In this document: positions 1 through 57,643 of the stretch, in pieces
Layout of the letters: each line of letters starts with the position of its first letter
Numbering within the stretch: the stretch's first letter is position 1
Source: Parasedimentitalea maritima
GTDB taxonomy: Bacteria > Pseudomonadota > Alphaproteobacteria > Rhodobacterales > Rhodobacteraceae
DNA: 64,000 nucleotides
Reading direction: 5' to 3'
NCBI RefSeq assembly: GCF_005771405.1
Contig: NZ_VAUA01000003.1
Coordinates: 124,001 to 188,000 of the forward strand
The notes under the pieces: model-generated
The model's database searches: none
The model's input: only the letters and a program-made list of their open reading frames with translations
What the model was told of the DNA's origin: nothing
Program-made: the position numbers and the translations under genes

Positions 1-1088
1 ATCAACGGCGCGAGCGGTTTCACCATCAGCGGCTCGACCACAAGATAGACGGAAATTGGCGTCTTACGGATATCGCTGAAATCAAAGTCTGAGGTTGCTG
101 TTGCACGGTCGATTGCAGGGTTAGACCATTGCTTGAGGCCCGATGTCATTAGGAGTGACAGGTAGGACGTCAGCGTGTCGTTGTTGGTCGAGGCCATGCG
201 CATGAAGATCAACTTGGCAGCTGGATTGACCACCTCGTCGGCGCGGCGGCGATATTCCTTCTGCTTGTCACCGCCTGATGCGGTGATGCGGTAGATCTCG
301 CCTAGGGTCGGCCGCTTGCGCTCAAACGCTAAAAGTCCCGCAGCCACGAACAGGTCAATCCCGCCATCAAGGAGCCCCTGAACACGGTCGTTTTCGGCTT
401 GCAGATACAGCGACGCCAAGAGCTGCAACTCCATCTGCTGGCGGTCGACATTTTCTAGCGCCGATATCCGCAGCAATGGGTTGTAGCGGTGCGAGCGGCC
501 GTCCTTCCAATCTGTGGGCGCAAACCGAAAGACCTTGTCACCCTGCATGGCCCGATGGCGCGCCGTCGCCCCAAAGTTTTCGCCCTTCACGTCCAGCACC
601 ACCGCACTGCCCTGATAGGTCAGAAGGTTCGGGATGACGAAACCCGTGGTCTTGCCGCGACCGGTTGGGGCCACGATAAGGGCATGGGGAAAGACCTTAG
701 ACATGACGAAGGGTTTTCGGCTAGTTGGCTTGCCCATTTTGCCGAGGACAAACCCTTGGCCGGGCTTGCCGAAAAAGCCGTTCCGCTTCATCTCTGACAT
801 GTACTGCCAATGGGTTTCACCGAATTTGGTCAGCGCGTCGTTCATCAACACAGCACTTAGCAAAACACCGGCGCAGGTGCATATCCCGACGATCAAGTGA
901 ACGATCTGCATATCGGCCGGATGGGTCGCACGAAGCCCTCCATAGCCGCGCGCCAGCATCAGAAAATCGATATCCGCGCCGACCCCGAACCAGCGGAACG
1001 TCAGAAAGGCCGACGCCAGAACATAGCCCAAAGCCGCGCCCAGAGCAGCAAAGCTCATGACGCCGAATGCGATCCGCGCCTTACCCAT
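1..1088 (-). CDS. VirD4/TraG-type coupling protein, C-terminus outside window
   Basis: Type IV coupling protein: an inner-membrane hexameric ATPase that delivers the relaxase-DNA complex to a mating channel. Reading leftward from ATG at 1088, about 362 residues are visible. Two hydrophobic segments (about 7-30 and 62-82) precede a Walker A loop, APTGRGKTT (about 140-148), and the segment VVLDVKGENFGA, which matches the DxKGE box of TraG/VirD4 ATPases. The start overlaps the end of the relaxase gene by 8 bases, so the two are probably translationally coupled. The C-terminal half lies beyond position 1. No other secretion genes are visible, so self-transfer cannot be distinguished from mobilization. 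Confidence 0.9.
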   Translation of the reverse strand, partial: MGKARIAFGVMSFAALGAALGYVLASAFLTFRWFGVGADIDFLMLARGYGGLRATHPADMQIVHLIVGICTCAGVLLSAVLMNDALTKFGETHWQYMSEMKRNGFFGKPGQGFVLGKMGKPTSRKPFVMSKVFPHALIVAPTGRGKTTGFVIPNLLTYQGSAVVLDVKGENFGATARHRAMQGDKVFRFAPTDWKDGRSHRYNPLLRISALENVDRQQMELQLLASLYLQAENDRVQGLLDGGIDLFVAAGLLAFERKRPTLGEIYRITASGGDKQKEYRRRADEVVNPAAKLIFMRMASTNNDTLTSYLSLLMTSGLKQWSNPAIDRATATSDFDFSDIRKTPISVYLVVEPLMVKPLAPL

Positions 1089-2889
1089 GCGTCACACCCT
1101 TTTCGCCATCGGTATCGACGTGCCGCTCGCGCTGAACATCAATTTCTTCATTGGCGATCTCATCAAGGACATGCTCCATCGCCACACTGTTCGCCAGAGC
1201 GGCGTCGCTCTGCAGATAGGCCTTGGCCGCATACAGCCGGTCCAGCCGATCGCCCACGTGGTGCTCTAGCGTGGTTTCATCGCCGATCGCCAAGTCGGGG
1301 GCCTGCTCTTCACCGACTAGTTCCTCCAGCTCGGCCCGCAAGGTCTCGCGCTCCAGGTCGCTGCGGAATGGATCTGCGGTTGGGTCGTCCCTCATTCGGC
1401 TAAGGATTTCTGATGTGGTCGGCGGCAACCTGTCGACCACGCCTTCCTGCCGGTCGGCCTCTACCGCCCCACTGTCTTTGAGAACCTCCCCCTCGGCCAA
1501 AACACGGCCCAGATCGCTGTGCACCTGGTCGAGACGGTCAATCGCCTTCTCCAGCTCATCGGCGCGAGACAGGTCAAAGCCCTCCTTCTCGGCAATCGCC
1601 TTCAAATCCTGACCAAGCCATTGCCGCTCCAGCGCGGCATTACCTGCGCCCATTTCGACGCGACGCGTCACCTCATGCGCTTCAATGCCAGTGCCTTTCA
1701 AAGCCTGTTCAAGACGTCCTGTGAGCGCGGGATCCTGCAGTGCACTTTCGGCGTCGGCCTGAATGTTCGCGGTCGAATAGATCCCACTTTTGGACGCATC
1801 TTCGAGCAAGATGTGGGACTGCGCTCCCATTGGGCTCAGATGTGACAAAGAGCGATAAATGTCGTTCAGCTCATGCTCCAGCGCGGCGCGCCGCTCCACC
1901 GGGGCGTCCGCTACGATGCGTTCAGCTTGGTGGATCTTGTCGTGAAAGGCATCCACGACCTCATCAAACGAATGCTGTTCTTCGGCCATACCATATACCT
2001 TTCCATCTGCTTCAATCGGTTTGCCCTGCGCCAGGAGCGTCGCGGCCTTGTCCAAGGCTGCTGCAATGTCATGCTGGTTTTCACGCGAGGCCTCGGCAGC
2101 CAGGCCGCGATAAAGCCGCGCGTTCTGCGCCACCTCACGCAAGGTATGGTCGAGCTCTGGACCAACGCGCTCGCGCTCGGTCAGCTTTTGGCCCGTGGCT
2201 TCCACGCGACGCTGGTCAACATCGCTCGGCCTCTTCGTCGTGATCCCGCGCTCGAGCTTTCGCGTCGCCTCAAGGCGCAGCCCATAGCGGTCCGACACCT
2301 CAACCATCGCCTCGCGAAAACTGTCGTAGTTGAAGTGGTGCCCTTCCTTCAGAAAGAAGAACTCCCCATCCTTACTGCGCCGGTTCAGAACGATATGAGC
2401 GTGCGGGTGGACCCGGTCTTCATGAACGGCAGCGACATAGTCGAAGTGGCTGCCTTCACCCTGAAAGAACCGTTCGCAAATTTCGCGCGTGATCTCGGCG
2501 ACATCCTCGCCGCGCGTCCCAATCGGGAAGGCCATCAGGAGATGTGAGGTGTGCCCGAGCTTCGGGTGGAACCCCTCATTCCACTGCGCCGAAAACCGAC
2601 GTGTGACCTGCTCAATCTCTTTACCTGACAGAACGCTTTGGCCGTCATAGGTGCCACGGCTGTCGATGATAAAGCTCGACTTGGTGGTCAGGTATTCCAG
2701 CTGGTTGCGCAGCTGCGCTTTGTTGTGCGTGCCGCCGTCGCGAATGGCTTTGAAGATCGCGGGTGAATGCCCCATGGCGGCGCGCGCCATCTGCTTTGCG
2801 CGGGCGCGCGGGACGCTGCCGCGAATGCGACTCCAGTCCCGATCGAAGAAGGCCTCCTGTGCGGCGGCAACGGCGCTATTCCGGGCCAT
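1081..2889 (-). CDS. Relaxase/mobilization nuclease, VirD2-like (MOB family)
   Basis: Nicks one strand at oriT and pilots it during conjugative transfer. About 602 residues. The N-terminal third carries the relaxase fold: a tyrosine in the motif LEYLTTKS (near residue 66) is the likely nucleophile, and HEDRVHPHAHIVLNRR (about 156-171) holds the metal-binding histidine triad. The remaining ~400 residues are charged, helical and unassigned. An ATG exists nine codons upstream, but the start at 2889 has GGGAGG eight bases before it and lies just inside the end of mobC, so it is preferred. The order mobC-relaxase-virD4 is the usual mobilization operon of rhodobacterial plasmids and integrative elements. 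Confidence 0.9.
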   Translation of the reverse strand: MARNSAVAAAQEAFFDRDWSRIRGSVPRARAKQMARAAMGHSPAIFKAIRDGGTHNKAQLRNQLEYLTTKSSFIIDSRGTYDGQSVLSGKEIEQVTRRFSAQWNEGFHPKLGHTSHLLMAFPIGTRGEDVAEITREICERFFQGEGSHFDYVAAVHEDRVHPHAHIVLNRRSKDGEFFFLKEGHHFNYDSFREAMVEVSDRYGLRLEATRKLERGITTKRPSDVDQRRVEATGQKLTERERVGPELDHTLREVAQNARLYRGLAAEASRENQHDIAAALDKAATLLAQGKPIEADGKVYGMAEEQHSFDEVVDAFHDKIHQAERIVADAPVERRAALEHELNDIYRSLSHLSPMGAQSHILLEDASKSGIYSTANIQADAESALQDPALTGRLEQALKGTGIEAHEVTRRVEMGAGNAALERQWLGQDLKAIAEKEGFDLSRADELEKAIDRLDQVHSDLGRVLAEGEVLKDSGAVEADRQEGVVDRLPPTTSEILSRMRDDPTADPFRSDLERETLRAELEELVGEEQAPDLAIGDETTLEHHVGDRLDRLYAAKAYLQSDAALANSVAMEHVLDEIANEEIDVQRERHVDTDGEKGVTHG

Positions 2890-3466
2890 CGGCAAAGCCT
2901 CCCAGTACGCGGGCAACCTCGCCAGACAGCGCGCTTCGTCGGCGCTGCGCCATGTCCTGAACCTGGTCGGCGATATCGAAGATCAGCCCGGCCAAGGCGC
3001 GGACTTGGCCATGGGCAGAATTGCCATAGGGCGGTGTCTTGCCCTGTCGCTTTGCCTCATTCAGGCGCTGTGCAATCTGGTTGATGTTGTTGCCGGTGCG
3101 ATTGAGTGAGGCCGAGAGCCCATGCATCTGATTGGCCAGTTCATCGTCAGGAACGAAAAGATCGTTCGCCGCATAGATCAGCCGCCGCAACCCGTCGGCG
3201 CGGCTGTTGATATCATGCCGCGTCAGCACCGCATCAAAGCTCGCAAGCTCTCTTGGCGTGAGCCGGACATTCACCAGTTCTGAACGCACGCGTGCATCCA
3301 ACTTGCGGCTTTGATCGGCCTTCAATGTGTAGAAGATACTGCGGGTCGTGACGCCGAATTCGCGGGCCAGATCCTCGATCGCCACCCCTTCGGCACGCTT
3401 GCGCACGATGGCAAAACGCTGGTTTTGCGTCAGTCGCTTGTGCCGTGGTGCGCGCGGTCGGCCCAT
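2876..3466 (-). CDS. MobC-like relaxosome accessory protein with N-terminal HTH
   Basis: Relaxosome protein expected to bind and open oriT for the adjacent relaxase. The 196-residue product begins with a basic helix-turn-helix segment (about 10-50, EDLAREFGVTTRSIFYTLKA) like the DNA-binding domain of resolvases. It ends with a MobC signature, GNNINQIAQRLNEA (about 125-138). A central MobC/ribbon-helix-helix-like stretch contains VRLTPRELASFDAVL. It is the first gene of the leftward mob operon, overlaps the relaxase start, and faces a palindrome-rich gap where oriT would be expected. Being both DNA-binding and promoter-proximal, it may also repress its own operon (inference). Confidence 0.8.
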   Translation of the reverse strand: MGRPRAPRHKRLTQNQRFAIVRKRAEGVAIEDLAREFGVTTRSIFYTLKADQSRKLDARVRSELVNVRLTPRELASFDAVLTRHDINSRADGLRRLIYAANDLFVPDDELANQMHGLSASLNRTGNNINQIAQRLNEAKRQGKTPPYGNSAHGQVRALAGLIFDIADQVQDMAQRRRSALSGEVARVLGGFADGPE

Positions 3467-4393: not shown

Positions 4394-4593
4394 CGCAACG
4401 CCTCCTCAAGGATTGCGAGAGCCCCAAGACAATCGTCGATATAGGGCTGCTCCTCGCCATCCAGATCGTTCAGCTCCAACCGGTTCAACACCGTGTAAAG
4501 CGTGGCGCGCGCCTCGCGGGCGGCGCTCCGCAGGCTCACGGTATCGTCCAGACGCGCCGTCGCAAAATCATCGCTGTGATAGTCCGGTGTCAT
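4390..4593 (-). CDS. Small acidic protein downstream of ardC (67 aa)
   Basis: 67 residues, acidic and helical (RLDDTVSLRSAAREARATLY, then LDGEEQPYIDDCLGALAILE). Its ATG overlaps the ardC stop codon as ATGA, and its own stop overlaps the next start in the same way, so the three genes are almost certainly co-translated. Family not recognised. An accessory role to ArdC or in plasmid establishment is only inferred from the coupling. Confidence 0.65.
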   Translation of the reverse strand: MTPDYHSDDFATARLDDTVSLRSAAREARATLYTVLNRLELNDLDGEEQPYIDDCLGALAILEEALR

Positions 4594-5468
4594 GCTGCCA
4601 CCTCCTTGCTTTGACCTGCTGCGTGCAAGACAAAATCAGCTGCCTTTTGCGCCTCAGACGCCGCACGAAAAATCGCTCGTTTGTCGTCTTTCAATGCCTT
4701 CAACCAGCCCTCAACATAAGCCGCACTTTGGCCAAATTCCGGCGCAACCCCGATCCGCGCTCCAAGGAAACACGCGCCAATCTCGGCTACCAGTTCTTCG
4801 AATGCATAGGCCTCACGGTTCGCAAATTTCTTGATCCGCTCAAGCCGCTTTTCACTGCCAGTCCAATGGATCACCTCATGGGCCAACGTACCATAGTAGC
4901 CTGCCGCATTGTGAAAGGTGGCAATCGGCGGCATGTGGATGTGATCTTTGGCGGGGCTGTAATAGGCGCGCGGGTTGTCACTGGTGAGGATCTCCGCCCC
5001 TGTCCGGCTGAAGAACGCCTCAAGCTCTGGATCTTCCGTCGTGCCAAGGTCGCGTGGGGCCTCGGGCCGGATGTAGTAATCCTCCGGCAACCCCTCGATC
5101 TGATCTGCATTGAACACGCGATAGGCGCGCGCATAAGGCAGCTCCTCCTCGATGCCCAATTCGTTCTCTCTGATGAACGTCCCGTATTTGACCACGGTGG
5201 ACGACGTTTCACCTTTGCGGACTTGGCCGCCCAGCTCTTGCGCCTGTTTGTAGGTCATCCAGCGGCTCGAAGCATAGCCATGCTTGGCCGCCATGACCCA
5301 GAGCAGCAGGATATTAATCCCGCGATACTCCTCGCCGTTGTGTCGGGTCGGCAGGGCAATGCCGGACGCGCTTCCGGTCCACGGCTTGCGCCATGGCGGC
5401 GTGCCTGCCTCGATCTCTGCAATAATGGTGTCGGTGACGTGGGCATAAACATCAAACTTCGGTGCCAT
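4590..5468 (-). CDS. ardC: ArdC-family antirestriction protein (DUF1738/zincin-like)
   Basis: ArdC proteins bind single-stranded DNA and protect incoming plasmid DNA from host restriction. The 292 residues show both family parts: an N-terminal ssDNA-binding ArcC-like domain (about 5-125, with TPPWRKPW and YRGINILLLW) and a C-terminal zincin-like metallopeptidase domain. The zinc motif is HEVIHWTG (HExxH at 197-201), with a downstream glutamate in EELVAEIGACFLG (about 224-236) as probable third ligand. AGGAGG seven bases before the ATG supports the start. It heads a three-gene ATGA-coupled operon. Finding it beside mob genes and a restriction-like operon suggests the element carries both a shield and a weapon. 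Confidence 0.9.
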   Translation of the reverse strand: MAPKFDVYAHVTDTIIAEIEAGTPPWRKPWTGSASGIALPTRHNGEEYRGINILLLWVMAAKHGYASSRWMTYKQAQELGGQVRKGETSSTVVKYGTFIRENELGIEEELPYARAYRVFNADQIEGLPEDYYIRPEAPRDLGTTEDPELEAFFSRTGAEILTSDNPRAYYSPAKDHIHMPPIATFHNAAGYYGTLAHEVIHWTGSEKRLERIKKFANREAYAFEELVAEIGACFLGARIGVAPEFGQSAAYVEGWLKALKDDKRAIFRAASEAQKAADFVLHAAGQSKEVAA

Positions 5469-11485: not shown

Positions 11486-14451
11486 CACGTACCGCCCGCC
11501 CTAAAATTCCAGTTCTTCATATCGCAATAGGCCCGCATATCGCAGTTTTCACACAGCTTTGCGGGACGTTCCTTGATCGCATAGTCGCGACCCTCAATCC
11601 GGTCCACGACGGCATCAAACGATGCGATAGTTTTGCCAATAGCCTTACCGTCCTTTTCGAACGAAATAAACGGGTTACTGTCCTGCTCGCCGGTATAGTA
11701 TAGATGCGTCTTGCTGACCTTCTCGCCCGTCCGTTCCTCAACCAAGTGGGCGTAGACCTCAAGCTGACGCTGATATTGGCGCAATCGGCTGCGGTCCTTC
11801 TCCATGTCCGGCTTACGTTCCGACTTGAAGTCTATCAGCTCGACCGTGCCGTTTTCGCCCCTGATCAGGTCCACACTGCCCTTGAGGATGTAGCTGTCCT
11901 TGACCAATGAGATGTCGACCTCGGCCTCCTTCAGCCGGTCGAAATTCTTACGTTCGCGTTCCACGTATCGTTCAACATGGCCATGCGCCGCCCTCAGCGA
12001 CGGCGGAGCCAGATATTGCCGCTCGCGCTTGGAGAGGTAGTGGTAGTTCGTGTCGAACCACCCTTTGATCTGATCCTCGGTGACCAGATGCGGTTCACCC
12101 CGCAGGACGGCCTTGTGCACGTCCTCAATTGTCTGGTGCACCAACGTACCAAAGAGCTGCGCCCCCGCTCGGATCGGCTGGAACTCGAGTTCTTTGAAGA
12201 AGCGGTACTGTTCAGCGCAGTTCTCGAACAGGGTGATGTGCGAGGTGAAGGAGTATTCCCGCTTGAGGTTCACGTCTTTGACCTGCTCGAAGTCAAAGTT
12301 CTCGACCACGAACTTCGGATCGCGCCAATGGGGTAGATCATGGAAGCAGTCATCGAAGTACCGCGACGGAGACCGGCCACGCCCTTCTTTGACCTCCGTG
12401 GCAAGTACCAAAAGGTTCTGTGCCCGCGAAAAGGCCGTGTAGTAGAGCCGTCGGAAGTCAAAGAACTTGGTTCGCTCCATCGGTTCGAACGGTGGTTTGT
12501 TCAGAAAGGGTTCGAGCAACTCATCGATGTCCGTCCATTGCTTGCGCGGCGTCGCCTCGAGCGATCCACAGATCACAATCGGGAACTCGAGCCCCTTGGA
12601 CTGGTGGATGGTCAGGAATGAGACGCACCCACTGGGTGCGTATTCGCTGTCATCCTCGTATTCATTGATCCCACCCTCGTGCAAAAACTTGAGGTAACGG
12701 TTGAACAGATCCCGGATATTCTGGTCCAAGAAGCGTGGGTTCAGAACCGTTATGTAGTGAAGATATTCGAATTTCACTAACAGCTGGGAAAACGTCGCCA
12801 AGTTGCGCGCCGCGCGTCCTTTATCAACGCCGGTCAGTTGGTCTTCTTCCAGAAACCTGCTGAAGAGCGGAAACTGAAGCAGCTGATAGAACAGCCCGGA
12901 AAACGCGTAGTCAGCATCTGCGGTCAGGTTGAGATGTCGTTTGGCCAACGGCCGCGCCCATTCCAGCAACCGCTTATTCTCTGGTTTGCGCAGTTCCTGA
13001 ACGAACAGTTTGAAACACTGCTCGTCATAGTACTCCCAAACACGCATCTCGAGATCTGCGCGCTCCTGTCGAACATCTGCAAACTGCGGGAACAGGAAGA
13101 TCAGCGCACCGATCATCAACCTAATCTCTTCGCGCTCAAAATAGAGGTTGGAGCGCGGCGAATAGACCGGGATGCCGTTGGACTCGAGGTGCCGGGCAAG
13201 CGCAAGCACTTTGTCGTTTTTCACAGACCGGAACAGAAATGCGACCTGGTTCCAGTCTGTCAGTTCGCCAGACGCCTCGAGATGGCGCAGGAACTCGTAG
13301 ACTTCATCCTGAAAGCTGTTGTCGTCAGTTTGGGTGATTTTCAGAACCGAGCTGACGTCCGCAAAATCATCGGGGCGCGGTTCGATAACCTTGTCATACC
13401 GGTATTGCGCGTCCTTATCGCTCCATTCTTCATCAGCGATCCAAGAGTTGTAGAAGTCGATAATTTTCGGGTCAGAGCGATAGTTTACCGTAAGGGATAC
13501 TTGTTCACATTCGCCCTTCGCAAAATTGCTGGGGTACTCAAGAATATTCCGAATAGTCGCGCCGCGAAACCGGTACAAACCCTGATCATCGTCGCCCACG
13601 ACGCACAGGTTTTTTGTGTCACCGGCCAAGTGGAAAAGTATCTGCTCCTGGATCGTGTTCGTGTCCTGGTACTCATCGACCATAAGGTGGGAGAACTTGG
13701 ATTTCAGGCTGTCTAAGACACCGGGGTGATCCTTCAACAACCGCAAAGCCTCGAACTGAATGCCCGAAAAATCGAGCGCATTCGCCTCTTCCAATAGGTG
13801 CTGATAGGTCGCGAAACACTCGGCAAGCGCCTGAAGTGACGCTTGCTCTGAGCCTTCGAGCGCCTTGATGTCCAGCGTCTCTTCTGTGACTTTGTTCAGC
13901 CACTTTAGGAGCTGCGTCGATTGATACCAACGTCCAGACCGGTCTTCGCCAATTAAATCGGTGATTCCATCGATGCCCTTGAACTCTCTGAGACGTTGGT
14001 AGAGGAAATATTGCTGATCAAATTGGTCGAGAAGATTGAAACTGCGCTTTAACCTCGTGAATTCGCTATGATCCTTTAAGATGCGGAGGCACAAAGAATG
14101 AAACGTGCCAATGTACATCTCGTTGACGTTGAAACTAAGCCCGGCAGACATCAATCGGTTCGAAATGCGGGTTGTTAGCTCTTGAGCCGCTTTTTCTGTG
14201 AAAGTTACGACCAAAAGAGATTCAGCCGTGGCTTGTCCGGCCGCGATCAACGCCACAACGCGCTCCACAAGGGTGTACGTTTTTCCTGAACCCGGGCCTG
14301 CAATAATTAAGACTGGCCCATCTGAGCATCCGATCGCACGCTTTTGACTTTCGTTTGCTAGCGAACTTGAAATTGTTCTGGCTCCCAAATGACTTTCTGC
14401 AACTAAATGGCGCTGGAATAAATCGAGCCATAGCCCGACTCGAACTGGCAC
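11485..14451 (-). CDS. UvrD/PcrA-like SF1 helicase with C-terminal PD-(D/E)XK nuclease
   Basis: 988 residues. All SF1A motifs are seen: I AGPGSGKTYT (51-60), Ia VVTFTEKAAQEL, II VDEYQDTN, III VVGDDDQGLYRFRG, IV VNYRSDPK, V FLTIHQSKGLEFP and VI YYTAFSRAQNLLVLA. The last ~250 residues form an AddB/Cas4-like nuclease with LKGSVDLIRG, VELIDFKSERK and a terminal cysteine cluster (CENCDMRAYC) that may bind iron-sulfur. The start is uncertain: GTG at 14451 follows an in-frame TAG by one codon, and no ATG exists before the ATPase motif. It is the first gene of the UvrD-Mod-Res operon, which suggests a DNA-degrading defence role. An origin as a stand-alone recombination helicase is the alternative. 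Confidence 0.9.
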   Translation of the reverse strand: MPVRVGLWLDLFQRHLVAESHLGARTISSSLANESQKRAIGCSDGPVLIIAGPGSGKTYTLVERVVALIAAGQATAESLLVVTFTEKAAQELTTRISNRLMSAGLSFNVNEMYIGTFHSLCLRILKDHSEFTRLKRSFNLLDQFDQQYFLYQRLREFKGIDGITDLIGEDRSGRWYQSTQLLKWLNKVTEETLDIKALEGSEQASLQALAECFATYQHLLEEANALDFSGIQFEALRLLKDHPGVLDSLKSKFSHLMVDEYQDTNTIQEQILFHLAGDTKNLCVVGDDDQGLYRFRGATIRNILEYPSNFAKGECEQVSLTVNYRSDPKIIDFYNSWIADEEWSDKDAQYRYDKVIEPRPDDFADVSSVLKITQTDDNSFQDEVYEFLRHLEASGELTDWNQVAFLFRSVKNDKVLALARHLESNGIPVYSPRSNLYFEREEIRLMIGALIFLFPQFADVRQERADLEMRVWEYYDEQCFKLFVQELRKPENKRLLEWARPLAKRHLNLTADADYAFSGLFYQLLQFPLFSRFLEEDQLTGVDKGRAARNLATFSQLLVKFEYLHYITVLNPRFLDQNIRDLFNRYLKFLHEGGINEYEDDSEYAPSGCVSFLTIHQSKGLEFPIVICGSLEATPRKQWTDIDELLEPFLNKPPFEPMERTKFFDFRRLYYTAFSRAQNLLVLATEVKEGRGRSPSRYFDDCFHDLPHWRDPKFVVENFDFEQVKDVNLKREYSFTSHITLFENCAEQYRFFKELEFQPIRAGAQLFGTLVHQTIEDVHKAVLRGEPHLVTEDQIKGWFDTNYHYLSKRERQYLAPPSLRAAHGHVERYVERERKNFDRLKEAEVDISLVKDSYILKGSVDLIRGENGTVELIDFKSERKPDMEKDRSRLRQYQRQLEVYAHLVEERTGEKVSKTHLYYTGEQDSNPFISFEKDGKAIGKTIASFDAVVDRIEGRDYAIKERPAKLCENCDMRAYCDMKNWNFRAGGT

Positions 14452-15121: not shown

Positions 15122-16414
15122 TCATACGGCATGAAAGGCAATCGCCCGACGTCGTATGCCAGCAGCAATGGCATCTGCCAATGGCTGTGGAAACCCATCC
15201 GGCAGGTCTGCTAGCGTCTTGTCCAAGGCGGGTTCAAGCTCAGACGCGACGCCCGACAAGACCTCTTCCGCCAGCGCCACACCAAAACCTGCCGCCTTCG
15301 CAGCCTGCAGGAAATGGCGCGGTACGACCTCGTTGATCCTATAGTGCCCGTCGATCGCCATCGCGAGACGCATCCGGTTCTGGCGGATTTGACCGTCATC
15401 CACGGCTTTCTGGGCGCTTAGCACGTCATAAAGCGGGGTTATGCGGAAACCGCCGGGGCGCAATGCAATGCTGAAGTTCTTGGCGTGCCCGTCCGTCGCT
15501 CCCAAAAGCCAAAACAGCACCTGCGCGCGGAAGAAGGCACGCTGATCTGCTTCAGGGTCATCACTACCGGTCAACAACCCGATCCCTTCAGTGATCCCCG
15601 GCCCGCCATCCATTTGGTATTTCTGGCTGGGTGGAACTGTGAGCGCCTGGCAAAAGTCTTCCTGCGGGAGGCGGATCAACCGGCCATCTTTGGTCCAGCG
15701 CCGATCGAACCGGGTCACAACAAGGCTCCGCACGTCCTCGAAGTCGGCAATCTCGACTTCAGCCACATCCATGCCCATGGCCCGACAGAGGTTCATGCAG
15801 AAAAATTCGTTCTCAACACTGTCAGACAAATCGATCTCTGCGGGCAGAACGCCAAGCTGCGTCTTGAGGATATGGGTTGTTGGGGTGAGCCCCGATGGGC
15901 GGATCCACGCGCCCTCGTGGCGTAGCAGCGCCGTTTTCTCCTGCGCCCCTGCGATAGAAATGCGGAAGTCGTCTTCCTCGTCTAAGCCAAGGGGGGCACT
16001 TGCGAGGTTGCGTAACATATCCGCAATCTGTGCCTCGGAAACGGGCTCTCCCTCGAGTGCGCCAACCTCGGGGATCTCACCCGAAACGAACTGCAAGGCC
16101 CCCACACAATCGCGGCCGATCTTCTCCAGCATGTGCCACGCGTCCGTGCCGCCCGCACGCACCCGTGCAGCAACGCGTTCTCGTATCGCCTGACTGTCCG
16201 GCAGCAGGTTTTCCAGGTAGGCAATGACAGGGCCGCCTTGGTGCGCCTCTTCGCGCAATGGCAGTGACAGCGAGATTGGCATGGCGTGCTCCCACGACAG
16301 CCAGTCCTGATCGTAAGTAAAACTGATCGCGCCCGAGCCAGCGAGACGTAAGGCCCCCACCAGCCTTCCATTCAGAAGCACCTGCATCGTGCCACTACGC
16401 CCGCGTTTGGCCAT
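15122..16414 (-). CDS. hipA: HipA-family serine/threonine kinase toxin
   Basis: 430 residues. HipA toxins phosphorylate a host target (glutamyl-tRNA synthetase in E. coli) and cause growth arrest. N-terminal HipA_N features (LNGRLVGALRLAGSGAISFTY; LPLREEAHQGGPVIAYLENLLPD) precede the kinase core: the autophosphorylation/P-loop-like ISIAGAQEKTALL, THILKTQLG, NEFFCMNLCRAMG, catalytic GATDGHAKNFSI and the metal-binding ITPLYDVLSA. Both the catalytic Asp and the second Asp are present, so it appears active. The start ATG overlaps the hipB stop as TGATG. It probably acts as an addiction or defence module that stabilises the island. Confidence 0.95.
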   Translation of the reverse strand: MAKRGRSGTMQVLLNGRLVGALRLAGSGAISFTYDQDWLSWEHAMPISLSLPLREEAHQGGPVIAYLENLLPDSQAIRERVAARVRAGGTDAWHMLEKIGRDCVGALQFVSGEIPEVGALEGEPVSEAQIADMLRNLASAPLGLDEEDDFRISIAGAQEKTALLRHEGAWIRPSGLTPTTHILKTQLGVLPAEIDLSDSVENEFFCMNLCRAMGMDVAEVEIADFEDVRSLVVTRFDRRWTKDGRLIRLPQEDFCQALTVPPSQKYQMDGGPGITEGIGLLTGSDDPEADQRAFFRAQVLFWLLGATDGHAKNFSIALRPGGFRITPLYDVLSAQKAVDDGQIRQNRMRLAMAIDGHYRINEVVPRHFLQAAKAAGFGVALAEEVLSGVASELEPALDKTLADLPDGFPQPLADAIAAGIRRRAIAFHAV

Positions 16415-16659
16415 CAGAAGATATCCTCGATTTCAAGCGAGCCACCGCGCTCCACCAATCGGAACTCAAGCCCAAGTGCCGCCATGACAGCGAGCACTGT
16501 GGCGAGCTTGGTTCCCGCGTCGCCATTCTCGAGCGACGAAATCGTCGCGACGCGCAAATTCGTGCGCGCGCTGATGTCGCTTTGGGTCCAGCCGCGCGCT
16601 TTGCGCGTCCGGCGGAGTGCCTCGCCGATCTGCTCGGCCGTTCGTGCTGTGAGGTCCAT
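16414..16659 (-). CDS. hipB: HipB-family antitoxin/repressor (XRE HTH)
   Basis: 81 residues with one XRE-type helix-turn-helix (GEALRRTRKARGWTQSDISA, then LRVATISSLENGDAGTKLATV) and a C-terminal tail LEFRLVERGGSLEIEDIF. HipB neutralises HipA and represses the operon by binding promoter dyads. Three evenly spaced TTACG-N6-CGTAA dyads lie directly upstream, the first starting 14 bases before this ATG. Gene order hipB-hipA and the one-base overlap are typical. Confidence 0.92.
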   Translation of the reverse strand: MDLTARTAEQIGEALRRTRKARGWTQSDISARTNLRVATISSLENGDAGTKLATVLAVMAALGLEFRLVERGGSLEIEDIF

Positions 16660-16672
16660 GATGTGGTTCCTT

Positions 16673-16756: not shown

Positions 16757-17620
16757 TTATGCCTGCAGCCCCGCAGCGCGCACCTGCTCGGGCGTCACCA
16801 GCTTTGATGCGATCAAATCCTCGATCTGCCGGTTGGTGATGTGGCGGCATAGAGGATGGCGCTCGTGGATCCATTCGGCGAGGCTCGCTCGGCCTTTGGC
16901 TTCGGCCTCTCGCGCCTTCTCGCGGTCGGCCTGCACCTGGGCAAGCCCCGTCTCCCACCGGCGCATCTTGAACCAATTGTCCGAGAAACAGACCTTGCTC
17001 CGCGTGTAGCCTTCGCTTTCCTTGGCATAGGCTTTGACCGCTTGCTTCAGATCATCGGGCTTCACTCCCGCCTTCACAGCTGCTGCGATCAGGCGCAGAC
17101 TGGTTCGCCGGTCTCGGATCCTGTCTTCGGGATAGGCCGCCAGGATCTTCTCAGCTTCAAAATCTTCAACCTCCGCCGCCGCCTCGCGCTTGCGCGTAGG
17201 TGGTTTATGGATGGTTTTAGGATGGTTTGGGGTCCACCGTGAACCCCGTACCCAGTTCACCGTGGACCCCGTACCGGGTTCAGGCTGGACGGGGTTCACA
17301 GTGACCCCCGTGTCGATGTCGGGCTCAGCCGTGGGTTCGAGCGCGGCCACGCGCTCCAGAACGATGCGGTAAATGACGGTGTAGCCGTTCTTGCAGTGCC
17401 GCCGCCCCGTCTCGATCAGAATGCCTTCGCGCAGGAAGTCGATGATGGTGCGCTTCACCGTGCTCTCGCTGAGCTCTGTGTGGCGCTGGATCGTCCCCTT
17501 GGAACACCAGATGCCTGAGCCGTCATCGCTCGCCTTGTCGGCCAGGAACATGATGATCTGCTTGCGCGCGGCGCTGCCAAAGCGGCGCTCGGCGCATTCA
17601 TTTGCGATGCGCCAGCTCAT
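16757..17620 (-). CDS. HTH replication-initiator-like protein of the left island
   Basis: 287 residues. The N-terminal winged-helix (about 1-80; GSAARKQIIMFLADKASDDGS, then CSKGTIQRHTELSESTVKRT and REGILIETGRRHCKNGYTVIY) is an HTH_36-like domain common in phage and plasmid initiators. The C-terminal half is helical and charged, ending CRHITNRQIEDLIASKLVTP. The prophage gene at 48413-49288 has the same layout and related sequence (ADxASDDGSGIW.SKG, RKCKNGFTVEYRIDL, PxICRHIT at the C-terminus). Between the domains the DNA carries iterons (17230-17313), as in lambda gene O. It is the last gene of the left island before the att copy. Confidence 0.75.
   Translation of the reverse strand: MSWRIANECAERRFGSAARKQIIMFLADKASDDGSGIWCSKGTIQRHTELSESTVKRTIIDFLREGILIETGRRHCKNGYTVIYRIVLERVAALEPTAEPDIDTGVTVNPVQPEPGTGSTVNWVRGSRWTPNHPKTIHKPPTRKREAAAEVEDFEAEKILAAYPEDRIRDRRTSLRLIAAAVKAGVKPDDLKQAVKAYAKESEGYTRSKVCFSDNWFKMRRWETGLAQVQADREKAREAEAKGRASLAEWIHERHPLCRHITNRQIEDLIASKLVTPEQVRAAGLQA
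17209..17313. repeat. Iteron array and AT-rich patch inside the initiator gene (candidate origin)
   Basis: Four imperfect dyads based on TTCACCGTG (variants TCCACCGTG, TTCACCGTG, TTCAGGCTG, TTCACAGTG) start near 17233, 17256, 17279 and 17295, giving steps of 23, 23 and 16 bases. Several are joined by CCCCGTACC. Beside them lies the AT-richer run GGTTTTAGGATGGTTTGGG. The arrangement matches an origin embedded in an initiator gene, as in lambdoid phages. Confidence 0.6.
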
Positions 17621-17726: not shown

Positions 17727-17765
17727 GGCCCCGGTTCACAGTTGCCGCTGTGACGGGGCCTTTTT
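17727..17765 (+). terminator. Rho-independent terminator at the end of the left island
   Basis: A GGCCCCG / CGGGGCC stem extended inward by TTCACAG / CTGTGA is followed by TTTTT on the plus strand. It would stop rightward transcripts just before the att copy. No rightward gene immediately upstream explains it. Confidence 0.7.
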
Positions 17766-17870: not shown

Positions 17871-17917
17871 GGATTGCAAATCCGTGTACACGAGTTCGAT
17901 TCTCGTACTCGCCTCCA
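17871..17917 (+). other. attL: 47-bp tRNA-Cys 3'-half fragment
   Basis: This 47-base segment is identical to 57597-57643. It contains a GCA anticodon loop (TTGCAAA), a T-arm (ACGAG TTCGATT CTCGT) and the 3' acceptor strand ending CTCGCCTCCA, which is the 3' half of a tRNA-Cys. No matching 5' acceptor (GGCGAG) or D-arm precedes it, and the 5' anticodon strand (CTGGA) no longer pairs, so it is an attachment-site remnant and not a working tRNA gene. Confidence 0.9.
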
Positions 17918-48135: not shown

Positions 48136-48416
48136 TTTCTTTTCCTCTGCTCGTACGCTCTGATTTTGTTGCCTGCGAATTTCAGGGCTGCTGCAATGTC
48201 TCGGGCTATTGGGTCTGTCTTGGCTCGCGTTGCCTGTGCCTGGTGGGCCCCGCATATTTCGTCGAGGCTATGAAAATGGATGCGCCTTACCGAGGTGGTG
48301 ATTATTCCTTTCACTGGAGCCTGTAGAACGCAGTCCCCTGCGACTGGATCAATGGTCACCACGGCAACACCAAACACGATGCCATTTCTTTCAGGATCTG
48401 AGTGGGGAGACGTCAT
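48132..48416 (-). CDS. Hypothetical phage early protein (94 aa)
   Basis: 94 residues from ATG at 48416, which overlaps the stop of the initiator gene (ATGA). Its own stop overlaps the DUF1064 start the same way. A beta-rich N-terminus (ERNGIVFGVAVVTIDPVAGD) and a helical basic C-terminus (IARDIAAALKFAGNKIRAYE). Family not recognised. The tight coupling marks it as part of the replication/recombination unit. Confidence 0.7.
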   Translation of the reverse strand: MTSPHSDPERNGIVFGVAVVTIDPVAGDCVLQAPVKGIITTSVRRIHFHSLDEICGAHQAQATRAKTDPIARDIAAALKFAGNKIRAYEQRKRK

Positions 48417-49288
48417 AGGTTTATCCCTGCTGTCCGGCATTGCTCGACGGTCACCAGCTGAGCCGTGATGCATTCGCCTGCAGAGGCTGCGGTGATGTGA
48501 CGACAGATGAACGGCTTGCCTTCCAGGATGGTTTTGGCCCGAGCCTTGAGGATCTTCTTTGGATCCACTGGCTCTTTGGGTTTCGTGACAAGCTGGCGCC
48601 AGCGTTTCTGTTTCAGCCAGTTTTCAGAATAGAGGATGTACCGGGGCTTGTTGCCTTCCTGCTCAACCGCATAGGCCTTTGCCCCTGCCAGCACCACCTG
48701 TGGGTCAGCCCCCTCGCCCAGCGCGGTGCGCAACTCATCCTCGGTTTTCTCTGCATCGCCCATTCGGGGATAGGCACTCGAGAACTTCGAAATGAAATCC
48801 TGAAAATCAAATTCCAAGTCTTGTGTGTGGTCGGCGTCAGCCGGACATAAGGTTCTATAATGGTTAAAAGGATGGTTTGGGTGCATCTCCTGCACCGGTA
48901 GGGGTGCATTTCCTGCACCTGTCGGGTGCATCTCCTGCACGGGTGCATTTCCTGCGCCCGCTAGATGTTGTGGGACGGGTGCATTTCCTGCACGGGTCGA
49001 AGGGAGCGACAATACGGCGCCTAGGTCGATCCGGTACTCGACAGTGAAGCCGTTTTTGCACTTCCTCTGCCCCACCTCAAAGACAATCCCAGCCGAAACC
49101 AGTTCAGAGATATGCGTCTGCACGGTGCGCTTACTCTTCATCTCCAGATCGGCGGCCATGTTGCCCTTGCTGACCCAGATGCCGGATCCGTCGTCGCTGG
49201 CGGCGTCAGCCATATACAGCAGGATCGACTTCTTCGTCGGCGAACCAACCGACCGGCGCCTGATCAGTGAGTAGAGTTCAATACTCAT
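48413..49288 (-). CDS. HTH replication-initiator-like protein of the prophage
   Basis: 291 residues. An N-terminal winged helix (VGSPTKKSILLYMADAASDD, SKGNMAADLEMKSKRTVQTH, KCKNGFTVEYRIDLGAVLSL), a low-complexity middle with repeated GAGNAP and QEMHP units, and a C-terminal helical domain ending FICRHITAASAGECITAQLV. The repeats in the protein come from iterons in the DNA. The layout equals lambda O: origin-binding N-terminus, origin inside the gene, C-terminus that loads host replication proteins. The left-island gene 16757-17620 is a paralogue. Confidence 0.78.
   Translation of the reverse strand: MSIELYSLIRRRSVGSPTKKSILLYMADAASDDGSGIWVSKGNMAADLEMKSKRTVQTHISELVSAGIVFEVGQRKCKNGFTVEYRIDLGAVLSLPSTRAGNAPVPQHLAGAGNAPVQEMHPTGAGNAPLPVQEMHPNHPFNHYRTLCPADADHTQDLEFDFQDFISKFSSAYPRMGDAEKTEDELRTALGEGADPQVVLAGAKAYAVEQEGNKPRYILYSENWLKQKRWRQLVTKPKEPVDPKKILKARAKTILEGKPFICRHITAASAGECITAQLVTVEQCRTAGINL
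48862..48993. repeat. Iteron array and AT-rich patch in the prophage initiator gene (candidate origin)
   Basis: Five copies of the dyad GTGCATTTCCTGCAC (variants GTGCATCTCCTGCAC and GTGCATTTCCTGCGC) start at 48881, 48904, 48926, 48943 and 48979, giving steps of 23, 22, 17 and 36 bases. They adjoin the AT-richer run TGGTTAAAAGGATGGTTTGG. The last part, AGGATGGTTTGGG, is identical in the left-island origin candidate. Confidence 0.75.
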
Positions 49289-50888: not shown

Positions 50889-51056
50889 ATGGGTGAGCGA
50901 CCGGTATTTAAGCCTGCTGACCTGAGACGCGCCGTAACGGAATGGGCGGCACAAGGGTTTTCTGTGCGAATAGAACCCGACGGAAGTGTTTTAATCACTC
51001 CACCTACTGCGCAGCCATCCCAAGATCCCTTTGACCTGGTAGATATGAAACGATGA
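50889..51056 (+). CDS. Small protein upstream of integrase, possible excision factor (55 aa)
   Basis: 55 residues: GERPVFKPADLRRAVTEWAA, then QGFSVRIEPDGSVLITPP. It is preceded by AAGGAGAG (50876-50883) and its stop overlaps the integrase ATG (ATGA), so the two are translationally coupled. Short proteins of this form commonly precede integrases in rhodobacterial prophages. An excisionase-like role is inferred from the coupling. Confidence 0.65.
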   Translation: MGERPVFKPADLRRAVTEWAAQGFSVRIEPDGSVLITPPTAQPSQDPFDLVDMKR

Positions 51057-52033
51057 GGCGAGACCTTCCAGCACACGTCTATGACAAGTACGGCATCCTG
51101 TATTTCCAGCGAAGAGGCTACAAGTCTGCACGCATTGCCTCACGACCCGGCAGCAAAGAGTTTGCCCTGGAGTACGCCGCGCTGCTGAATGGCGCACAAC
51201 CTGCCCCACCGTCGGGGAAGACTTTCTCGTCGCTGGTGACGAGCTATGAGCGCAGCCAGCGATATCAGAACCTGGCCCCTCGCACTGCACGGGACTACGA
51301 CAAGGTGCTGGCATGGGTACGAAAGAAGCTCGGTCCACTGCCAGTCGACAGTATGCGTCGCAAGGATTTGATCCGGGCACGTGACGCCAACGCTGAAACC
51401 GTTCGGTTTGCCAACTACATCGTGCAGGTCGTGCGCATCCTGCTCGAGCATGCCATCGATATTGGCTGGCGTGATGACAATCCTGCCAAAGGCGTATCGC
51501 TACTGAAATCTGAAACTCCAGCTCGGCAACCCTGGCCACCTGAAAAGATCGACGCATTCAGAAAACACGCCAGCGGGCGCGCGCTGCTGATATTCGAACT
51601 GTGCCTTGGGACAGGTCAACGCATCGGGGATGTGCTCAAAATGCGATGGAGTGACATTGAGAGCGACGGCATTAACGTCACCCAAGGAAAGACCGGTACG
51701 GTGCTATGGGTGCCCTTCACTGCGCCGCTAAGAACGCTAATTTCCGAAACACCTAAAGTCGGGCCGACAATATGCGCCTGGGGGCGTGGCAAGCCGTCAA
51801 GTTACCGCAGCGCCCATGAACTGGTCATGAATGTCCGCAAGCAGATTGATGGGGTTGACTACGACCTACACGGGCTACGCTATTCTGCAGCGGCGGAGCT
51901 CGCATCACTCGGTTGCTCAGATGAGCTTATCATGGCCGTAACTGGCCACCAGACACGAGCAATGGTTGCGCGCTACGCTGGGTCTGCCCGGCAAGTATCA
52001 AGGGCCAAGGAAGCCCAAAAGCTCCGAAAATGA
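51053..52033 (+). CDS. Tyrosine-type phage integrase
   Basis: 326 residues. Catalyses site-specific recombination at the tRNA-Cys 3' end. An N-terminal arm-binding region (PAHVYDKYGILYFQRRGYKS), a core-binding SAM-like domain (about 55-150) and a catalytic domain with all expected residues: R190 (GTGQRIGDVL), K213 (TQGKTG), H273 and R276 (LHGLRYSA), H299 (GHQTR) and Y308 (ARYAG). It lies 5.6 kb from the right att copy; the cargo block 52.0-57.2 kb fills the gap. Confidence 0.93.
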   Translation: MRRDLPAHVYDKYGILYFQRRGYKSARIASRPGSKEFALEYAALLNGAQPAPPSGKTFSSLVTSYERSQRYQNLAPRTARDYDKVLAWVRKKLGPLPVDSMRRKDLIRARDANAETVRFANYIVQVVRILLEHAIDIGWRDDNPAKGVSLLKSETPARQPWPPEKIDAFRKHASGRALLIFELCLGTGQRIGDVLKMRWSDIESDGINVTQGKTGTVLWVPFTAPLRTLISETPKVGPTICAWGRGKPSSYRSAHELVMNVRKQIDGVDYDLHGLRYSAAAELASLGCSDELIMAVTGHQTRAMVARYAGSARQVSRAKEAQKLRK

Positions 52034-57596: not shown

Positions 57597-57643
57597 GGAT
57601 TGCAAATCCGTGTACACGAGTTCGATTCTCGTACTCGCCTCCA
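57597..57643 (+). other. attR: 47-bp tRNA-Cys 3'-half fragment
   Basis: Identical to 17871-17917. Here the anticodon stem is intact (ACGGA / TCCGT around TTGCAAA), but the D-arm and the 5' acceptor GGCGAG are missing, so it is not a functional tRNA. Just after both copies the sequence TCAAT(C/G)ACTTAC is shared, so homology runs a little past the tRNA end. Confidence 0.88.

What the first reader, a model, noticed from the sequence alone, without database searches (positions are those of the whole stretch)
17209..17313. A second iteron-in-gene origin on the neighbouring island, with a shared AT-rich core
The left island's paralogous initiator gene has its own dyads (TTCACCGTG type) with steps 23, 23 and 16, at the same relative place between N- and C-terminal domains. 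The iteron sequence is unlike the prophage one, yet AGGATGGTTTGGG beside it is identical. This suggests initiator and iterons co-evolve while a fixed unwinding core is retained. A mobilizable island with phage-type replication is unusual.
Basis: partly seen in the sequence, partly recalled or inferred. Interest (0 to 1): 0.75.

Follow-up and report, generated by a model that had tools for sequence, protein, structure and literature searches.

The report
Phage-type origin hidden in initiator gene
A gene in a conjugative DNA element carries its own start-of-replication signal inside its coding sequence, and part of that signal, an AACC motif repeated about once per turn of the DNA helix, recurs in the initiator genes of many unrelated phages, which points to a shared but so far untested step in how phage DNA is opened for copying.

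Summary
Gene 16757-17620(-) is an O-like replication initiator. Its linker, predicted disordered, is encoded by dyad iterons (half-sites 17233, 17256, 17279, 17295; steps 23, 23, 16). The "AGGATGGTTTGGG core" is the iteron-proximal copy of three phased GGTT/AACC units (17202, 17213, 17224).

The element is not merely mobilizable. It is an apparently complete 42.6-kb ICE at tRNA-Cys with type IV secretion genes, relaxase and integrase. It stands in tandem with the prophage that carries the paralogue.

The main new result is that the core is not private to these two islands. Among 49 dereplicated O-like genes gathered by protein only, AACC leads all 256 tetramers for triples at 11-12-bp steps (15 genes; synonymous shuffles mean 1.4, maximum 5). 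It occurs in all three reading frames and, in one contig, beside iterons in non-coding DNA. It was seen in genomes or phages of Pseudomonadota, Actinomycetota and a cyanobacterium.

Best reading: a lambda-type origin-in-gene in which variable iterons recruit the initiator and a phased, G-poor AACC tract is the opening and helicase-loading site (inferred). Lambda and 34 of the 49 genes lack the strict triple. Nine literature searches found no description of it.

The parts
16757..17620 (-). O-like replication initiator of the ICE, 287 aa (P0001): N-terminal winged helix about 1-92, linker 99-152 of low confidence (taken as disordered), helical C-terminal domain from 154
   Evidence: phrog_270 1.2e-18; AlphaFold2, pLDDT <50 at 99-121 and 124-152
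17229..17311 (.). Iteron dyads, half-sites at 17233, 17256, 17279 (degenerate), 17295
   Evidence: beyond synonymous shuffles
17202..17231 (.). Phased core: GGTT at 17202, 17213, 17224 (AACC on the coding strand, steps 11 and 11); includes AGGATGGTTTGGG 17219-17231; the least stable 40-mer of the gene covers it
48413..49288 (-). Paralogous initiator of the prophage, 291 aa (P0002), 36% identical to P0001 in the pairwise alignment
48880..48993 (.). Prophage iterons GGTGCAT(C/T)TCCTGC(A/G)C, five copies at 48880, 48903, 48925, 48942, 48978
48851..48881 (.). Prophage phased core: GGTT at 48851, 48862, 48874 (steps 11 and 12)
17871..17917 (+). att copy (tRNA-Cys 3' end) between ICE and prophage
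57597..57643 (+). Second att copy, taken as right end of the prophage
1081..2916 (-). Relaxase of the ICE (MobA/VirD2-like nuclease domain)
   Evidence: conserved near the initiator
2876..3466 (-). MobC-like accessory protein of the ICE (below the Pfam cut-off)
4590..5468 (-). ArdC-like antirestriction protein of the ICE
15122..16414 (-). HipA-like kinase near the initiator
51053..52033 (+). Tyrosine integrase of the prophage

Best explanation
P0001 is the replication initiator of an integrative and conjugative element, and its origin lies inside its own gene, as in phage lambda. The N-terminal winged-helix domains bind the dyad iterons in the linker-coding DNA; this specificity co-evolves with the iterons. 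The assembled initiator then opens the adjacent tract, which is the least stable stretch of the gene, G-poor on the coding strand and marked by AACC about once per helical turn (11-12 bp, three or more times). The exposed A/C-rich strand is the site where initiator, helicase loader or helicase docks, so that theta replication of the excised circle can start. Shown from sequence: gene identity, iterons, phased core, their order, independence from reading frame, covariation of iterons with the N domain, ICE context. Inferred: binding, melting, strand choice, loading, and that the circle replicates. The AACC register is a shared element of many phage origins, not a local relic.
For: Unbiased set (genes gathered by protein or profile; 140 genes, 49 after dereplication at 60%): AACC is first of 256 tetramers for w-N7/8-w-N7/8-w, 15 genes; the next overlap it (GAAC 7, AAAC 6, ACCA 3), the first unrelated one is GGCG with 3. 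Steps 11-12 give 15, 10-11 give 8, 12-13 give 6, the other steps from 6 to 24 give 0-3. Five of the 15 (L099, L101, L102, L103, L534) are the window's own two families; without them it is 10 of 44. Synonymous shuffles give a mean of 1.39, maximum 5 of 200 rounds. All 15 have 3-6 repeats in the 130 bp upstream and 1-3 downstream. Frames of the first AACC in 105 genes that have an N domain and a core pair: 41/41/23. In loci L001-L141 and L486-L558, 88 of 815 open frames of 200 or more codons carry the triple; by my reading of the list all 88 are initiator-type genes or overlap one (some of these loci were found by peptides that include the core, or by the core itself). Complete viral scan: 75 stretches, 60 with an O-like domain over the motif (not dereplicated; many are one marine phage class); reversed pattern 27 stretches, 1 O-like. 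One contig has iterons plus core in non-coding DNA (L219). Core coding strand G 10.7% against 28.2% in iterons. The ICE core is the least stable 40-mer of its gene. Low-confidence linker 99-152. Lambda precedent: passages of PMC7466680.
Against: 34 of 49 unbiased genes lack the strict triple (30 of 49 have a pair at 10-13 bp; shuffles mean 12.9, maximum 20). 7 of 11 named phages lack the triple and 5 of them even a pair, although they were found with queries from core-bearing loci; lambda has none. The prophage core ranks only 30th of 834 for instability. With 12-bp steps the repeats keep frame (KPSNKPSNEP), so in some marine phages peptide repetition could contribute. C-domain similarity also correlates with iterons (Mantel 0.345, 0 of 2000; partial 0.177). 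No experiment was done.
Confidence: 0.72

Rival explanations
1. The repeats are protein-level: a low-complexity linker whose peptide repeats (GAGNAP, PNHP, KPSxEPS) are selected or merely duplicated, giving DNA repeats as a by-product.
For: The linker is repetitive in peptide too; 12-bp steps keep frame in the marine phage class.
Against: Synonymous shuffles do not reproduce the direct repeats or the number of AACC triples; 11-bp steps read each unit in a different frame; all three frames are used; iterons plus core occur in non-coding DNA in L219.
Confidence: 0.06
2. The AACC tract is a binding site of a host factor (bending, loading or priming) rather than a melting region read by the initiator.
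For: It stays with different C-terminal domains and also occurs in DnaD-like loader genes and in non-coding DNA; a recurring 4-base motif at helical phase suggests sequence-specific recognition.
Against: I matched it to no known host site (from recall; no motif library was searched); position and low stability fit the AT-rich tract of lambda.
Confidence: 0.17
3. The iterons are an autoregulatory or incompatibility site and the element replicates only by relaxase-driven rolling circle during conjugation; the initiator is a phage leftover.
For: ICEs often rely on relaxase-driven replication (recalled); the same half-site type occurs in a hairpin at about 17727-17765, upstream of the gene (my reading).
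Against: The initiator is kept at 87-97% identity in 19 other genomes, each with the AACC triple; several of these genomes have neither this relaxase nor this VirB4 (G038, G240, G232, G052, G100, G045).
Confidence: 0.12
4. The motif enrichment is an artefact of shared ancestry of one initiator lineage.
For: Close ICE relatives were over-sampled before dereplication; five of the 15 positives are the window's own families.
Against: Dereplicated at 60% identity, with different C domains, three frames and several phyla.
Confidence: 0.08

Closest known systems
Phage lambda / Stx phage origin in gene O (ori-lambda)
   Same: Iterons in the middle of the initiator gene, followed by an opening tract on the same side; O proteins interact with single strands rich in A and T (passages of PMC7466680; L266).
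   Different: Different iterons; no AACC pair in lambda O; opening tract there is A-rich; the carrier here is an ICE.
SPP1 oriL in gene 38
   Same: Direct repeats within the origin-binding protein gene, and an AT-rich DUE (passages of PMC6316719).
   Different: Firmicute phage; sequence not compared here.
PHROG families 270, 391, 1032, 678 (replication initiation / O-like)
   Same: P0001 and P0002 match.
   Different: The descriptions shown say nothing of an origin or of an AACC core.
DnaA-trio and 13-mer DUE repeats of oriC and iteron plasmids (recalled)
   Same: A repeated short motif next to initiator boxes.
   Different: 3- or 13-bp step and other sequence; here AACC at 11-12 bp.
ICE replication by relaxase (ICEBs1, SXT; recalled)
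   Same: Conjugative element with relaxase and T4SS.
   Different: This ICE also carries a phage-type initiator with iterons.

Membership tests
Lambda-type origin (ori inside O-like initiator gene) | Initiator protein of the O-like group | tested here: met
   phrog_270 1.2e-18, phrog_391 (O-like) 1.4e-10
Lambda-type origin (ori inside O-like initiator gene) | Several iterons between N and C domains | tested here: met
   (four half-site positions, the third degenerate)
Lambda-type origin (ori inside O-like initiator gene) | Unstable tract on the C-terminal side of the iterons | tested here: met
Lambda-type origin (ori inside O-like initiator gene) | Initiator binds iterons and opens the tract | not testable with these tools
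   needs purified protein
Lambda-type origin (ori inside O-like initiator gene) | Lambda iteron or lambda AT-tract sequence | tested here: not met
   lambda O has no AACC pair and its iterons read differently; so it works like ori-lambda but is not the same sequence family
Integrative and conjugative element | Integrase at a tRNA att site with flanking repeats | tested here: met
Integrative and conjugative element | Relaxase, coupling protein and T4SS genes | tested here: met
   relaxase and VirB4 near the initiator in 9 of 48 chosen genomes
Integrative and conjugative element | Excision and transfer | not testable with these tools
   no reads or cultures
AACC-phased core | Three AACC at 11-12 bp on the coding strand, downstream of iterons | tested here: met
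   for both window genes
AACC-phased core | Universal in O-like genes | tested here: not met
   15 of 49 strict triple, 30 of 49 pair

The most novel reading that the evidence does not exclude
A phased AACC/GGTT register, about one unit per helical turn, is a cross-phylum 'opening code' of temperate-phage origins. It is read by a common partner (the initiator or loader on the opened strand, or a conserved host protein) and stays fixed while iterons and initiator DNA-binding domains diversify. ICEs have adopted the same module. It would be the phage counterpart of the DnaA-trio of bacterial oriC.
Probability: 0.4. Interest if true: 0.9.

Novelty: new variant of a known kind. Interest (0 to 1): 0.74.

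Why it matters
Origins of many temperate phages and ICEs are unmapped (from general knowledge). A short phased motif that sits next to the iterons, independent of reading frame and seen in several host phyla, would let origins be read from sequence, would show that specificity (iterons with N domain) and opening (AACC tract) are separable modules, and would pose a testable question: who reads AACC once per turn? It also shows an ICE that carries a phage-type initiator besides its relaxase, which bears on how ICEs persist after excision.

Tried and rejected
Rejected: the 13-mer as a unique shared core (it is one of three units). The third genomic copy of the 13-mer as functional (it is inside a LysR-type gene). 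Peptide constraint as sole cause. 'Mobilizable island' (it has the genes of a full ICE).

Led nowhere or weak: tblastn of P0001 in phages gave no match. The genome contigs pattern scan (103 stretches) was mostly noise: 11 of 61 non-tandem hits had the iteron asymmetry. Of these 11 rows I read seven as initiator genes (L393, L402, L434, L435, L441, L466, L472); five of the seven were checked by PHROG; L391 (two rows), L398 and L468 were not initiators or unresolved. The phylum-wide pattern search hit 7 of 398 genomes with 0 reversed-pattern hits, 5 of them with the P0001 initiator family and one a tandem repeat. P0002 against solved structures gave no relevant hit. Foldseek against PDB gave no match below E 0.01 and mostly winged-helix regulators in the 50 rows shown; against viral models it gave HTH and O-type phage proteins with TM-scores to the query of at most 0.34 in the rows shown. 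Nine literature searches found no description of the AACC element.

Rows dropped before counts: hits without 130-bp flanks, and tandem low-complexity hits (forward 126 hits to 112, control 111 to 89, genome 126 to 61); one search left out loci L142-L150; 15 family loci without a recognisable N-domain frame.

Full report
What is at the coordinates. Positions 17209-17313 lie inside the minus-strand ORF 16757-17620, 287 aa (P0001). It matches PHROG replication-initiation families (phrog_270, 1.2e-18; phrog_391 O-like, 1.4e-10) and, below the curated cut-off, Pfam HTH_36. The paralogue at 48413-49288 (P0002) does the same, with HTH_36 above the cut-off; the two are 36% identical. AlphaFold2 on an alignment of 19 sequences gives a winged helix at about 1-92, pLDDT below 50 at 99-121 and 124-152, and a helical domain from 154. 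Iterons and core therefore encode the linker, which I take as disordered.

Is it more than chance and codons? Yes for both genes' direct repeats, and for the ICE gene's inverted repeats, against 300 synonymous permutations and 300 redraws. The prophage's inverted matches are not unusual in that test. The 13-mer AGGATGGTTTGGG occurs twice in the window against none in 100 shuffles, and a third time in the genome inside a LysR-type gene.

On the coding strand the ICE gene reads AACC at three places 11 and 11 bp apart (GGTT at 17202, 17213, 17224), the prophage gene 11 and 12 bp apart (48851, 48862, 48874). In both it is on the C-terminal side of the iterons. The least stable 40-mer of the whole ICE gene coincides with it; in the prophage gene it ranks 30 of 834.

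The element. A tRNA-Cys gene at C17:99290-99363 is followed at once by a tyrosine integrase (L007:15432-16463). Then come T4SS genes (VirB4, VirB5-type, TrbI, VirB11-type ATPase, TrbL, coupling protein), the relaxase, ArdC and, last before the att copy at 17871-17917, P0001. From tRNA end to att this is about 42.6 kb. A second att copy at 57597-57643 closes the prophage, so the two elements stand in tandem at one site. I then searched 48 genomes, chosen from the 86 positive ones because they hold a (near) full-length initiator. Relaxase (83% identity or more) and VirB4 (94% or more) lie on the same contig, with the initiator in a span of about 32-52 kb, in 9 (G000, G373, G372, G241, G257, G255, G308, G193, G013). 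In G112 and G127 the genes are on different contigs, and G049 has only VirB4 nearby. Several others hold the initiator without this T4SS or relaxase, so the initiator module is shared among elements. Relatives of P0001, fragments included, occur in 86 of 394 genomes sampled from the family.

Unbiased test of the core. I gathered initiator genes by protein or profile only, 140 genes, some of them fragments, 49 after dereplication at 60% identity. I then asked of all 256 tetramers which occurs three times at 11-12-bp steps. AACC leads with 15 genes; GAAC (7), AAAC (6) and ACCA (3) overlap it; the first unrelated is GGCG (3). Other step sizes give few or none. Five of the 15 are the window's own families (L099, L101, L102, L103, L534). 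Synonymous shuffles give a mean of 1.39 and at most 5; pairs at 10-13 bp occur in 30 of 49 against a mean of 12.9, maximum 20. All 15 have 3-6 repeats in the 130 bp upstream and 1-3 downstream. In loci L001-L141 and L486-L558, 88 of 815 open frames of 200 or more codons carry the triple; on reading the list all are initiator genes or overlap one. Some of those loci had been found by peptides that include the core or by the 13-mer itself.

DNA-side test. A first scan of viral contigs with AACCATC-N4/5-AACCATC-N4/5-AACC stopped at 120 stretches, while the reversed pattern gave 108, so counts alone do not separate them. Context does: 4 or more repeats upstream and at most 2 downstream in 74 of 112 non-tandem forward hits (mirror case 1; loci) against 15 of 89 (mirror 3) for the reversed pattern. 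In the sample, 68 of 103 non-tandem hits lie in a gene with an O-like N domain. A stricter pattern whose scan was complete gave 75 stretches, 60 of them with an O-like N domain over the motif, against 27 and 1 for its reversal. These 60 are not dereplicated and many belong to one marine phage class (frames 1, 2 and 0 in 46, 9 and 5).

Reading frame and non-coding cases. In 105 genes (dereplicated at 0.85 score similarity; DNA-pattern finds included) that have an N domain and a core pair, the first AACC is in frame 0, 1 and 2 in 41, 41 and 23 genes, giving peptides such as PNHP, KPS or QTIL. In 33 O-like genes with iterons from the sample (60% dereplicated) the frames are 6, 16 and 11. In L219 four iterons and the core stand between genes, next to a WhiB-like gene (name recalled); no ORF of 70 aa or more covers them. 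L247 and L262 have a core without a forward-strand ORF and without such iterons. DnaD-like helicase-loader genes (L178, L188, L191, L251) carry AACC runs too; by my reading they have no separate O-type iterons, although the script's repeat score called L178 positive. The core is therefore a DNA element and not tied to one protein domain.

Breadth. Initiator genes with iterons and core were read in named genomes: Oscillatoria, a Corynebacterium MAG, Pseudooceanicola, Caldimonas and a Hydrogenedentota MAG (PHROG-confirmed), and also in Alsobacter and a Dehalococcoidia MAG (not PHROG-checked). Of 11 named phages that I picked by hand for host breadth from the listed hits (whose queries came from core-bearing loci), the triple is in Pseudomonas JBD68 and LESphi3, Arthrobacter Abidatro and Gordonia DatBoi. 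A pair is in Vibrio D88 and Bifidobacterium Bbif-1. None is in Shigella SfII, Gordonia Soos, Lactobacillus Lc-Nu, Vibrio 1.116.O or Pseudomonas AF. Lambda has none.

Covariation. Iteron sharing (8-mers) between genes rises with N-domain similarity (Mantel r 0.517) and less with C-domain similarity (0.345); neither was reached in 2000 permutations; partial correlations are 0.441 and 0.177. Pairs with related N (0.5-0.8) and unrelated C domains share iterons in 42 of 86 cases; pairs with unrelated N and related C domains in 2 of 95; pairs unrelated in both in 266 of 4359. The domain-swapped relatives among L107-L122 illustrate this.

Mechanism. In lambda and Stx phages the origin lies in the middle of gene O, the AT-rich tract next to the iterons is described as crucial for unwinding, and O proteins interact with single strands rich in A and T (passages of PMC7466680). 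By analogy the AACC tract is most likely where the duplex opens. Its coding strand is G-poor (10.7% against 28.2% in iterons) and so unlikely to fold, which suits helicase loading. One unit per turn would place the AACC units on one face. Who reads it is open: initiator, loader or host protein.

Known or not. Origin-in-initiator-gene is known (lambda, SPP1). I found no description of the phased AACC element in nine searches of the held open-access library; papers outside it were not searched. I looked at passages of PMC7157519, PMC2647930, PMC7466680 and PMC6316719, and only at listings for the others.

Noticed in passing
window 17871-17917 and 57597-57643, tRNA-Cys at L007:15290-15363: ICE and prophage integrated in tandem at one tRNA-Cys end; where the tRNA gene has CCGG..CCGG in the T stem, both att copies have CGAG..CTCG, so pairing is kept.
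   Followed up: partly
window 6940-14451: Three-gene cassette: ResIII-type helicase with TnsA-like nuclease domain, N6/N4 methylase, UvrD helicase with PDDEXK nuclease; looks like a restriction or defence system.
   Followed up: no
L006:788-3242: Pyridine-nucleotide disulphide oxidoreductase with small membrane and heavy-metal-binding type ORFs beside it; looks like a mercury-resistance cargo (mer names recalled).
   Followed up: no
window about 17727-17765: Terminator-like hairpin between the initiator and att whose stem (GGTTCACAG..CTGTGAC) resembles the iteron half-sites; possible autoregulatory site.
   Followed up: no
L107-L122: Relatives that keep the C domain of P0001 but have an unrelated N domain and different repeats (TTTGCCC type in several), with a weaker core.
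   Followed up: partly
L247:9474-9520: AACCATCCACG repeated four times after a primase-like gene (name recalled), with inverted GGATGGTT repeats about 200 bp upstream: perhaps an origin in which the AACC units are themselves the iterons.
   Followed up: partly
L178, L226, L183, L191: Genes with AACCATCAAGC-type runs and, by my reading, no separate iterons; L178 and L191 match DnaD-like loader families, L183 and L226 match no PHROG.
   Followed up: partly
L586:680-950: Core pattern four times at 81-bp steps in one open frame.
   Followed up: no
L398: Dehalococcoidales MAG contig with GGGTTCACC repeats and a core but only an 81-codon open frame over it; non-coding or truncated origin, unresolved.
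   Followed up: no
window 15122-16660: HipA-like kinase with a small HTH-type ORF (my reading, not searched) next to the initiator gene, at the end of the ICE.
   Followed up: no
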